Under the pieces are notes generated by a model. That model made no database searches and was not told the origin of the DNA. It was given only the letters and a program-made list of their open reading frames with translations. A stretch of 64,000 nucleotides of DNA, from positions 22,138,418-22,202,417 of the forward strand of contig OX387605.1 of assembly GCA_947568835.1 (NCBI GenBank). The letters are read 5' to 3'. Each line of letters starts with the position of its first letter. Position 1 is the first letter of the stretch. Both the position numbers and the translations under genes were made by a program. The DNA is from Protonemura montana. Lineage: Eukaryota; Arthropoda; Insecta; Plecoptera; Nemouridae. Of this stretch, positions 58,279 to 61,200 are shown piece by piece.

Positions 58279-61200
58279 CTAGTGGACCCCATTGGTAGCC
58301 CCGTTGCTGTGGACTCCGTTGGTCTTGCCACTGTGTGCTGAACCATTGGTCTGCTTGATTACCGATGGCATGCCCCCATTAGGCAGCTGGTCCCCACGGT
58401 AACCATTGGGATTCATCGTCTGCCAGCGCCAGAAGTCCTCGCCTGGATCAGGTAGCTTGGTTAGTAACCAGTAAAGTGATTCCAAGATTTCTTATCGGCA
58501 TCGATAACTACTTCTTGATACCATATTGCCAATGGTTGCAATGGAAGAAATGCAAGCGTATTTATCAACAACCGTTAAGTAAAATCTCAGAATCATCCAA
58601 ATGGATTGCTGAACTTTTTGTTAATGGCTAAAAAGCTTGGATCAGAGAAAGTTTTCGTCCATGCCATTGAGAATTTCCAACCAAATTACATCTACCGACT
58701 TGCATCGTTCTATTCAAAATATTAGCATGGCCTACACATATGGTCAGCTAAGACTATGACTAATGTGGCAAATGAGCAATGAGTGAGTGAAATCTTGCCA
58801 AAGCCGACGTGTTATTTTGTTACGACGTTGATCGCATGCAAGGGTACAAGAAAAATCCATTCACTTAACCAGTTTTTTATATTTTCAGCTTTAGAAAGAT
58901 GGATTCATTTTGAGTGCCCTGCACCTTCTGCCCCACCAGACATTGAATGTGTACTGACAATGACATTACAAGTACTGGCACTATAGCCAAAGAATGTGTT
59001 GCAATGTCGTCATCAACACACACTTAATGCTTGGTGTAGTAGAAACCGGTACACATGATTGTTCTCGTCTTGAATCTATATCTCAGGAGCTAAAAATTTG
59101 AAGAACTTTTTTTGAAAGCCATGCAAAGCCTATTAGCCTCAACCTTGGGTTAAAGCCTATGTTAGCAAGCTGACAAAAGGACGAGGGAGCAGTCAAGGAG
59201 TCGCCAACCTACTCATCAAACGGGGGTCCGATTTGGGCCAGGTACGACTCACACATGCTGTCGAGCGTCTTGCCAGCGGTCCATCCCAGCTCGGCTGTCG
59301 CTAACTTGGTGTCCGCAACCATCGCGACGATGTCGCCGGGACGCCGCGGTGCGATCTCGTGCGCCACGTGGGACGCCGTCGTTCTTTCAAACGCAGCCTT
59401 GAGCTGTAGGACGGACACTCCGTTGCCCGTGCCGAGGTTGAACGTCTGCAAGGAGGGTGATCACACTACGGCCGGACGGGCACACGGCTGGCGATGCTGG
59501 CGTTGGGGGTGGAGGGCAAGGAGTCGAGGCACCGTGTTAGGCAAGATCGAAGACAGGACTTCATTCACCAGAATAGTGGCTGTGTGGTTGGTTGTAGTCA
59601 GGAAAGGGTGTGGTAGTATATGAAGAGAAGACTGTTGGCCATTAGGAGTTGCAGGCCACAATTCACCAGGTTCTTCTGGAAAGCAAGGTGCAAGGCTTTA
59701 TCTCTATTGATAGCAGTTTGTTGCTGAATTGGCAAAGAAATTTGTTATGATGTAATAAGCTCTGCTTGTTTTTATTTTGTTGGTTACTTGCTATGAAAGG
59801 TTATTTTGATCTTTAAGCAAGAATCTACCAGAAAGAAACAATGCTGCTGTCAATAAATGCTCATCGTTATACCGAGACCATTTGGTTTAGTTGCCAATTG
59901 AGCGTGCGAGTGTGTTATCAAAACCAAAAGCAATTAGCACTGTGAATTCGTTGTGAAGAAGGAATTATTGTGACAACGATGCCAGACATTTTCTTCTCCA
60001 ATAGAGATGCTACCATCTAGACTGTTATTAATTAGGCTTCTAGAACTCAATTTATTTTGCGCTGTGGATGAACATAGCTTATGAAGATAGCAAAACAAGT
60101 GTGAAAAAGATCCTTTACTCAAAGCTTATGGAACTTTGTGGATATTCATAGTTTTTGCTAAGCTCATCAACAAGCAGACATTTTCACTTTTGATCTTCCA
60201 TTTAAAATTGATATTACTGGTTCAAAAATTGCCTCTCCAATTCACAGTCAACTGAAGTCTGGTTTGCTTGTCCAATAATTCCGTGTCAGTTGAAGCAACA
60301 GTGTTTCCACAAGCAATGACTGCCCCGTTTTCTAAACAAAATTTTACAAAATTTTGTGTTAAACCCCAAGACCGTGCTTCTATTGAATGGCAGGATGTCT
60401 TCTTCTTTAATGAAAGGATCCTTGCTTGGTGTAAAGCTGTGATATACTTTGGTGAACCCAAAGCAAAGACCATAACTTTCTACATTGAAATGAGATGAGA
60501 GCTTTTATTTTCTTTATTGTTACCACCATAAAAGGTCTCATCTCACCTCTCTGTAGTAACAGCTACAGGATCCCTATGCATGTCAGCGTGAAGGCTACCG
60601 AATACCTTGAAGTGAGTGGATGTTACAGTGGATGAAATAGTGGATGAAATAGTGGATGACGGATACCAGCTTTCACGAGCCTTACACATGGTTTGGTGGT
60701 CCCGCGTGCAACTCCAAGCGAGCTCTGTATTGGCCAGCGTAGGGTCGCAAATCAGAGTGCCAACGTCGCCAATGCGGCGATTTTCCATCCTTGTCGGAAT
60801 CTCCTTGCCCGACGTAGAGCAGAATAGCGCCAGCAGCTGGCGTACGGACAGGCCGCTTCCAAGGCCCAAGTTGTATGCCTGCATTTCATGCAGGTCATGC
60901 CACATGCTTGGAACCATTCAGGGGGAAGGTACAGTCACAGAGACAGTACAGTGTTTAATCTAGCACAAGCCGAAGCTCAAAATTGCAGAAAATAGTATTT
61001 TATTTGATATAGAATGCTGATAGGGCTTAAAATATATCAGAAAGTTGTGCCATCTTTGTAAGTGTAGAGGAAAGTGGAGTAGTTACAGAACTCACTGAGA
61101 GAAGAGAACTCTCAGTGAGTTTTCCCTTGGTATGTTTTGTAGCTACGCAATGTTTCCTGTTCCCAATATGCATATTCAGCTGTTTGGAATACTACACACC

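What the first reader, a model, noticed from the sequence alone, without database searches (positions are those of the whole stretch)
59253..60878. Mutually exclusive duplicated exons in GALE
Two tandem homologous exons (60878-60686 and 59445-59253) are both exactly 193 nt, enter in phase 0 and leave in phase 1, and have good splice sites. The upstream exon (61465-61377) ends in phase 0 and the last exon (58442) needs phase 1. Exactly one copy must therefore be used: including both, or skipping both, shifts the frame. Exon pairs like this are well known in channels and adhesion proteins; I know of no description for the Leloir epimerase, though I cannot search.
Basis: partly seen in the sequence, partly recalled or inferred. 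Interest (0 to 1): 0.88.

Follow-up and report, generated by a model that had tools for sequence, protein, structure and literature searches.

The report
Swappable exon pair in insect epimerase
An insect gene for a sugar-converting enzyme of the GALE family carries two alternative versions of one exon, of which a working message can use only one; the same pair occurs in locusts, cockroaches, springtails, water fleas and shrimps, so this switch beside the enzyme's sugar pocket appears to be very old.

Summary
The window gene (minus strand, UDP-glucose 4-epimerase family; a second GALE-type gene lies on C13) has two tandem homologous 193-nt exons, A (60686-60878) and B (59253-59445), both phase 0 to 1 with AG/GT sites. 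Joined in silico, either alone gives an intact 386-aa protein; both give a stop 137 nt before the last junction; neither gives a truncated protein. A-type exons were found in 15 named relatives: springtails, Daphnia, orthopterans, a cockroach, a stick insect, a leafhopper, decapods, a mantis shrimp and an amphipod. In five species A and B proteins are identical on both sides of exactly this exon. The A exons in the tree form one clade (100/98), so the duplication should predate the split of these hexapods and crustaceans. A and B differ at nearly fixed positions around the sugar C5 pocket (human 307: Leu in A, Met in B); UDP-binding R300 and D303 stay. Searches of open papers found no description. 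Best reading: an ancient mutually exclusive exon switch that retunes the pocket. Exclusivity is well supported from relatives; the effect on substrates is inferred; RNA of this species was not available.

The parts
63205..63318 (-). coding exon 2 ([11 protein letters not shown]...NLLE), shared by both isoforms
   Evidence: GALE alignment
62469..62645 (-). coding exon 3, shared; holds the SSSCTVYG and YGRTK stretches that align with the human catalytic Ser and Tyr-x-x-x-Lys (catalytic roles recalled)
61747..61927 (-). coding exon 4, shared
61377..61465 (-). coding exon 5, shared, ends in phase 0
61089..61121 (-). 13-bp perfect hairpin in the intron upstream of exon A (function unknown)
   Evidence: I5; z -3.58; but only rank 47 of 3196 in the window scan and three partial genomic matches elsewhere
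60686..60878 (-). exon A (proximal copy), 193 nt, phase 0 to 1; A-type residues L271 V304 L307 C309 D310 (human numbering)
60477..60559 (-). long hairpin about 130 nt downstream of exon A (candidate splicing element, unproven)
   Evidence: I1; z -6.67; no second match in the genome search; rank 5 of 3196 windows
59253..59445 (-). exon B (distal copy), 193 nt, phase 0 to 1; B-type residues T271 I304 M307 A309
58279..58442 (-). last coding part (phase 1 entry, EDFWRWQ... to stop TAG at 58281-58279), shared

Best explanation
Exons A and B are a mutually exclusive exon pair inherited from an ancestor of hexapods, Daphnia and malacostracan crustaceans. Each mature mRNA carries exactly one. Shown here: two intact homologous exons, frame exclusivity, occurrence of both types in many relatives, and in five relatives A and B proteins of otherwise identical sequence. 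Inferred: that this species splices them this way, that double-inclusion messages are removed by nonsense-mediated decay, and that the swap changes the wall of the UDP-sugar pocket (position 307: Met in B, Leu in A; 271, 304 and 309 change with it) while the cofactor site, catalytic residues and UDP-binding R300 and D303 stay, so that the two isoforms differ in sugar-nucleotide preference or kinetics. Exon A has the acceptor poorest in pyrimidines, which suggests that B is the default and A the regulated choice. The confidence given is for the exclusive, ancient exon pair; the change of sugar preference alone I put at about 0.3.
For: Exons, phases and frame outcomes. Both isoforms, given without exon 1, pass the galE equivalog cut-off (331.4 and 338.3 against 262.3 bits). 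A-exon relatives in annotated isoforms. Same-species A and B proteins are identical upstream (runs of 262 to 269 residues) and downstream of the exon in Oratosquilla, Scylla, Macrobrachium, Daphnia carinata and Homalodisca, apart from different N-terminal starts in Oratosquilla and Homalodisca; inside the exon 24 to 26 of 65 residues agree. Of 135 exon domains in 129 proteins, 21 carry L307 with C309. A clade support 100/98, 20 rows of 67. Type-specific positions. Of 38 proteins from contigs under 3 kb, 6 have A, 32 have B, 0 have both (contig lengths; types). Five fused gene models carry a recognisable A before B, the same order as here. Pocket role of position 307: PMC6668579, passages seen. 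A acceptor: 8 of 20 pyrimidines, lowest of seven, a crude measure.
Against: No transcript of this species was available. WIN_A sits on a long branch (1.68), is at most 58% identical to any other A exon over 65 residues, and lacks Pro322, found in 18 of 19 other distinct A exons. Leu and Met are both bulky, so the specificity change may be small. A scores lower than B against the epimerase models and human GALE. No A exon was seen in 33 named holometabolan rows (list, cut at 120 rows) or in the two named myriapods. The fused models show that annotation of this region is unreliable.
Confidence: 0.87

Rival explanations
1. Exon A is a decaying relic of an old duplication and only B is used in this species.
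For: Long branch of WIN_A, pyrimidine-poor acceptor of A, no RNA evidence here, no A exon seen in the holometabolan rows at hand.
Against: Open frame over 64 codons, both splice sites intact, all five A-type residues and R299, R300, G302, D303, E317, L318, W320 kept; A isoforms occur in relatives.
Confidence: 0.06
2. The copies are alternative last exons: each is read through its donor to its own stop (A: 46 further codons, stop near 60545, AATAAA at 60518; B: 13 further codons, stop near 59211).
For: Read-through frames exist, and one AATAAA lies close to the A stop.
Against: gt donors on both copies; the shared last exon fits both; all five same-species isoform pairs continue with the same C-terminal sequence. 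AATAAA occurs 65 times on this strand of the window, so one nearby is unremarkable.
Confidence: 0.03
3. The pair is truly mutually exclusive, but the swap does not alter substrate choice; it tunes dimerisation, stability, cofactor state or protein contacts, or makes A a low-activity regulator.
For: Met and Leu are similar in size; many other positions differ too. In PKM the swap acts on oligomerisation and allostery (PMC7954323, passages).
Against: Four of the five type-specific positions lie at 304-310, around the residue reported to set sugar specificity (PMC6668579, passages).
Confidence: 0.4
4. Assembly error or collapsed gene copies place two exons from separate genes side by side.
For: The genome has a second GALE-type gene (C13).
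Against: In the 19.8 kb fetched there, that gene has one Cys-gate version of the region and no A or B exon; gene models of five other species hold a recognisable A and B in the same order; the introns here are unlike each other.
Confidence: 0.01

Closest known systems
coq-2 exons 6a/6e of C. elegans and other rhodoquinone users (PMC8659336, passages seen)
   Same: Mutually exclusive exons in a metabolic enzyme that exchange residues at the active site.
   Different: Another enzyme; there the substrate switch is shown by genetics, here it is only inferred; lineages differ.
Ketohexokinase exons 3A/3C (PMC6464065, passages seen)
   Same: Two exclusive exons in a sugar-metabolising enzyme; one isoform has greater affinity for fructose; the choice differs by tissue.
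   Different: Mammalian gene, unrelated fold (recalled); tissue choice is known there and unknown here.
PKM exons 9/10 (PKM1/PKM2; PMC7954323, passages seen; exon numbers recalled)
   Same: Mutually exclusive exons in a central metabolic enzyme.
   Different: Effect on oligomer and allostery, not on the sugar pocket.
Myosin heavy chain, N-cadherin and Dscam exon clusters of arthropods (search listing only)
   Same: Arthropod clusters of homologous exclusive exons, conserved between species.
   Different: Motor or adhesion proteins, often with more than two copies; RNA structures are reported to mediate the choice in Dscam1, nothing of the kind is shown here.
Human GALE and the Cys-gate GALE-type gene on C13 of this genome
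   Same: Same enzyme family; same fold for an A isoform (Homalodisca A model, TM 0.84 by query and 0.93 by target to 1hzj).
   Different: Cys at 307; in the C13 gene this region is cut by an intron at another place and was seen once.

Membership tests
Mutually exclusive tandem exons | Neighbouring homologous exons | tested here: met
   tblastn E 3.6e-12 against the window, next hit E 3.1; one clade for A
Mutually exclusive tandem exons | Compatible length, phase and splice sites | tested here: met
   Both 193 nt, phase 0 to 1, cag / gtaagg or gtgagt
Mutually exclusive tandem exons | Both or neither is not productive | tested here: met
   In silico joining: stop 137 nt before last junction, or stop after 9 codons of last exon
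Mutually exclusive tandem exons | Exactly one copy in mature transcripts, this species | not testable with these tools
   No reads of this species at hand
Mutually exclusive tandem exons | Exactly one copy in mature transcripts, relatives | tested here: met
   0 of 38 proteins from contigs under 3 kb hold both; 5 same-species pairs. That short contigs are cDNA is inferred; six gene models or entries on long or no contigs do hold both
Mutually exclusive tandem exons | Known mechanism of exclusion (too-close exons, competing RNA pairing, incompatible sites, decay) | tested here: inconclusive
   Gap of 1240 nt speaks against crowding here; hairpins beside exon A have no comparative support; frame-and-decay is sufficient in principle
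UDP-glucose 4-epimerase (GALE/GalE) | Equivalog model score over cut-off | tested here: met
   TIGR01179: 331.4 (A) and 338.3 (B) against 262.3 bits, proteins without exon 1; the subfamily model NF007956 stays under its cut-off of 394 (326.8 and 342.6)
UDP-glucose 4-epimerase (GALE/GalE) | Catalytic Ser and Tyr-x-x-x-Lys, UDP-binding Arg and Asp | tested here: met
   [14 protein letters not shown]300 and D303 align with human GALE in both isoforms; catalytic roles recalled, UDP roles taken from PMC6668579 by the offset between its Cys299 and human Cys307
UDP-glucose 4-epimerase (GALE/GalE) | Enzyme activity | not testable with these tools
   No assay

The most novel reading that the evidence does not exclude
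Since before the split of springtails, Daphnia, malacostracans and insects, one epimerase gene has made two enzymes by exon choice. The swap resets the C5-pocket wall (Met or Leu in place of the human Cys), so that the isoforms differ in UDP-sugar range, while a separate Cys-gate GALE-type gene keeps the broad activity. Splicing would then set the UDP-galactose and UDP-GalNAc supply for glycans by tissue or moult stage; Holometabola may have dropped exon A.
Probability: 0.3. Interest if true: 0.82.

Novelty: new member of a known kind. Interest (0 to 1): 0.66.

Why it matters
Mutually exclusive exons that rebuild the substrate pocket of a core metabolic enzyme are few (recalled; coq-2 is one). 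A pair kept across hexapods and crustaceans points to a real physiological need for two forms of a Leloir-type epimerase. It may have been overlooked because no such exon was seen in the holometabolan rows here and because some gene models fuse the two copies. It makes a direct test possible: do two isoforms that differ only within a 65-residue stretch prefer different UDP-sugars, and in which tissues? In Drosophila the two GALE activities play different roles in development (PMC3359975, title and start of abstract).

Tried and rejected
Third exon copy in the window: none. Alternative last exon by read-through: weak. Known RNA families: none at gathering score in 57500-64000; tRNA genes: none in the window. 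Upstream hairpin as a unique regulatory element: it has three partial matches elsewhere in the genome and ranks only 47th and 319th of 3196 in the two scan windows that cover it, so it may be chance or repeat-derived. The downstream hairpin had no other match, but that search passes over very common words. The 121 nt before each acceptor fold no better than shuffles (z -1.09 for A, 0.52 for B). Longer intron pairings (I3, I4, I6) are weak and were not pursued. Consensus-A protein search reached no new phyla with A: 5 hits of 26 candidates, 3 known A carriers and 2 without A. My first idea that Met-gate enzymes are bifunctional because Drosophila GALE is was dropped: I did not see the Drosophila residue, and this genome has a second, Cys-gate gene. 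A known miscount: one of the 101 'B' sequences is the truncated Timema genevievae A exon (P0031.1), misfiled by the script; the same call dropped P0001.1, P0026.1 and P0042.2. A genome-wide protein search for further copies did not complete; only the Pfam search was.

Full report
WHAT IS THERE. On the minus strand of 58-64 kb lies most of a UDP-glucose 4-epimerase gene: seven coding exons in the window, two of them alternatives, with coding exon 1 beyond its edge (position 68371-68613 when the window is continued into L009). Each is 193 nt, starts after cag, ends at a gt donor and is open in frame. A (proximal) and B (distal) share 23 of the first 64 residues; against the whole 64 kb each finds only itself and the other with a meaningful E-value (3.6e-12; next hits 3.1 and 4.3). 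blastn found no match between the introns around them.

FRAME LOGIC. Joined in silico, A alone and B alone each run to the same stop at 58281; A plus B stops at 59389, 137 nt before the last junction, which by the usual rule (recalled) would mark the message for nonsense-mediated decay; neither stops after 9 codons of the last exon. With exon 1 both isoforms are 386 aa. Without exon 1 both pass the galE equivalog cut-off TIGR01179 (331.4 and 338.3 against 262.3 bits) but not that of the subfamily model NF007956, and both match human GALE best among solved structures by sequence, B with the higher score (352.8 against 340.9 bits).

RELATIVES. A search keyed on the exon-A region gave 13 proteins of 24 candidates, 10 with an A exon and 3 with B; a search with the B isoform gave 8000 hits, of which the best 120 were listed; a consensus-A search gave 5 of 26. 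Together 129 proteins, with 135 exon domains. Twenty-one domains have Leu at human position 307 and Cys at 309; 109 have Met at 307; the rest are one Leu with Ala (a moth), two Ile, one Cys and one cut short. The 21 come from 15 named species (Orchesella, Folsomia, Anabrus, Gryllus, Schistocerca gregaria, Periplaneta, Timema tahoe, Homalodisca, Daphnia carinata, Oratosquilla, Scylla, Macrobrachium, Penaeus chinensis, Cherax, Trinorchestia) and six unnamed contigs. In five species A and B proteins of the same species are at hand; they are identical upstream for 262 to 269 residues and downstream to the end, apart from different N-terminal starts in Oratosquilla and Homalodisca, and agree in only 24 to 26 of 65 residues inside the exon. 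Among proteins encoded by contigs under 3 kb, most simply cDNA, 6 hold A, 32 hold B and 0 of 38 hold both (contig lengths; types). Six proteins hold both; all come from long contigs or from entries without a contig. In five of them a recognisable A exon comes before B; the sixth, Timema genevievae, has a truncated one. In Schistocerca gregaria X1 the stretch between A and B reads as 11 residues, which implies a gap of only 35 nt, too short for an intron by common experience (recalled), so crowding could enforce exclusion there, whereas the gap here is 1240 nt. The locust DNA itself was not seen.

AGE. On a tree of 67 exon sequences all 20 A rows (the window's A and 19 of the 21 above) form one side of a branch with support 100/98. 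Rows left out: three short A pieces (P0001.1, P0026.1, P0031.1), P0128, P0129, and B rows without a name. The tree rests on 65 columns and the window's A has a long branch (1.68). Inside the A clade six malacostracan rows group (98/92; the amphipod stands apart), Folsomia groups with four unnamed rows (99/92), and four Polyneoptera with Homalodisca (98/84). The window's A is on average 48% identical to other A exons and 38% to B exons; the window's B is 53% identical to B and 39% to A. Human is closer to B (50%) than to A (40%) on average, so A looks like the derived copy. From this I infer that the duplication predates the split of hexapods, Daphnia and malacostracans. With human as root the millipede sequence branches before A and B part, but that fork is weak (98/60). 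No A was seen in the two named myriapods or in 33 named holometabolan rows; the list is cut at 120 rows ranked by likeness to the B isoform, so absence is suggested, not shown.

WHAT CHANGES. Counts over 19 distinct A and 101 distinct B sequences, one of the latter a misfiled A fragment: position 271, Leu 17 and Ile 2 in A, Thr 93 and Ser 7 in B; 304, Val 19 in A, Ile 99 in B; 307, Leu 19 in A, Met 98, Leu 2, Ile 1 in B; 309, Cys 19 in A, Ala 94 and Ser 6 in B; 310, Asp 16 in A, Asn 65 and Asp 35 in B. R300, G302 and D303 are kept in all; R299 in all but one B with Lys. By PMC6668579 (passages seen), the residue equivalent to 307 lines the C5 pocket: small Cys or Ser in epimerases that accept N-acetylated sugars, bulky Tyr or Leu in those that prefer UDP-Glc/UDP-Gal, and human C307Y keeps 0.02 of the UDP-GalNAc activity. 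By that rule A looks restricted; Met in B is not covered by the rule. AlphaFold models of the Homalodisca A and B isoforms have mean pLDDT 77 and 81, and the A model matches human GALE with UDP-GlcNAc at TM 0.84 by query and 0.93 by target (the B model was not searched). The models show no ligands, so the pocket effect is inference.

SECOND GENE. The genome (258 Mb, 34 contigs) has another GALE-type gene on C13. In the exon region it is 42 of 65 identical to human and 29 and 25 of 65 to B and A; it has Cys at 307, and an intron at another place splits this region. On a tree of the shared part, 28 rows, the 24 other arthropod rows, the window gene among them, exclude it (99/99), yet it joins them rather than human (97/95), with long bacterial-like outgroup branches, so the date of this duplication is open. 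The window gene is therefore one of two epimerase genes and not the one closest to human in sequence, which may be what freed it to vary. Of the other PF16363 matches, the C12 one is 33% identical to the window protein and those on C4 and C16 gave no match at E 0.01.

SPLICING CONTROL. The A acceptor is the poorest of seven by pyrimidine count (8 of 20; the others 11 to 15; B 13); no trained splice-site model was used. A hairpin 130-210 nt downstream of A folds far better than shuffles (z -6.67), ranks 5th of 3196 windows after correction for G+C and has no other match in the genome search. A 13-bp hairpin lies about 210 nt upstream of A (z -3.58) but ranks only 47th and has partial matches elsewhere. 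Both were chosen after looking over about 2.5 kb of intron, and no related intron was available, so they are leads only.

LITERATURE. Ten full-text searches of open PMC papers were run. The seven that asked about this pair listed no paper that, by title, abstract start and term counts, treats exclusive exons in GALE. The one paper reports alternative splicing of a radish UDP-D-galactose 4-epimerase and cites variants in Aspergillus flavus, without calling them exclusive exons (passages); so splice variants of GALE as such are known elsewhere. The Kassiopeia paper covers twelve Drosophila species, Arabidopsis, C. elegans and human (abstract and passages). The Drosophila GALE paper PMC3359975 has no occurrence of 'isoform', 'exon' or 'alternative splic' in its main text. 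Subscription papers, preprints and supplements were not searched. The isoforms themselves are in public annotation.

SPECIES. Not identified. The shared part is most like cockroach and other polyneopteran sequences (164 of 187 identical to Periplaneta; 104 of 129 proteins compared, no well-supported fork holds it).

VERDICT. Observation confirmed; mutually exclusive splicing is the best reading, strongly supported by relatives and untested in this species. The change of substrate preference is a specific, testable proposal at about one in three.

Noticed in passing
G000:C13 about 6937970-6944710 (L015, L016): A second GALE-type gene of the same genome, closer in sequence to human GALE, with Cys at the sugar-pocket gate and no duplicated exon seen.
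   Followed up: partly
window 60477-60559: Long intronic hairpin downstream of exon A, z -6.67, no other match in the genome search; holds two AATAAA motifs (60518, 60509).
   Followed up: partly
window 61089-61121: Perfect 13-bp hairpin upstream of exon A; part of it recurs at three other places in the genome at 91-95% identity.
   Followed up: partly
window 60615-60659: Short tandem repeat, 12-nt unit, about 3.8 copies, just downstream of the exon A donor.
   Followed up: no
P0014, Schistocerca gregaria isoform X1: Gene model reads through an implied 35-nt gap between A and B in frame; the two exons would almost touch in the locust, unlike the 1240-nt gap here.
   Followed up: partly
window 54474-55145, plus strand: Open frame with an MT-A70 methyltransferase domain (E 6.4e-20).
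   Followed up: no
window 28526-28981, minus strand: Open frame with an integrin alpha Ig-like domain 3 match (E 1.1e-6).
   Followed up: no
window 42001-42100, 6641-6740, 46861-46960: The three most stable G+C-corrected minus-strand folds of the window, not examined.
   Followed up: no
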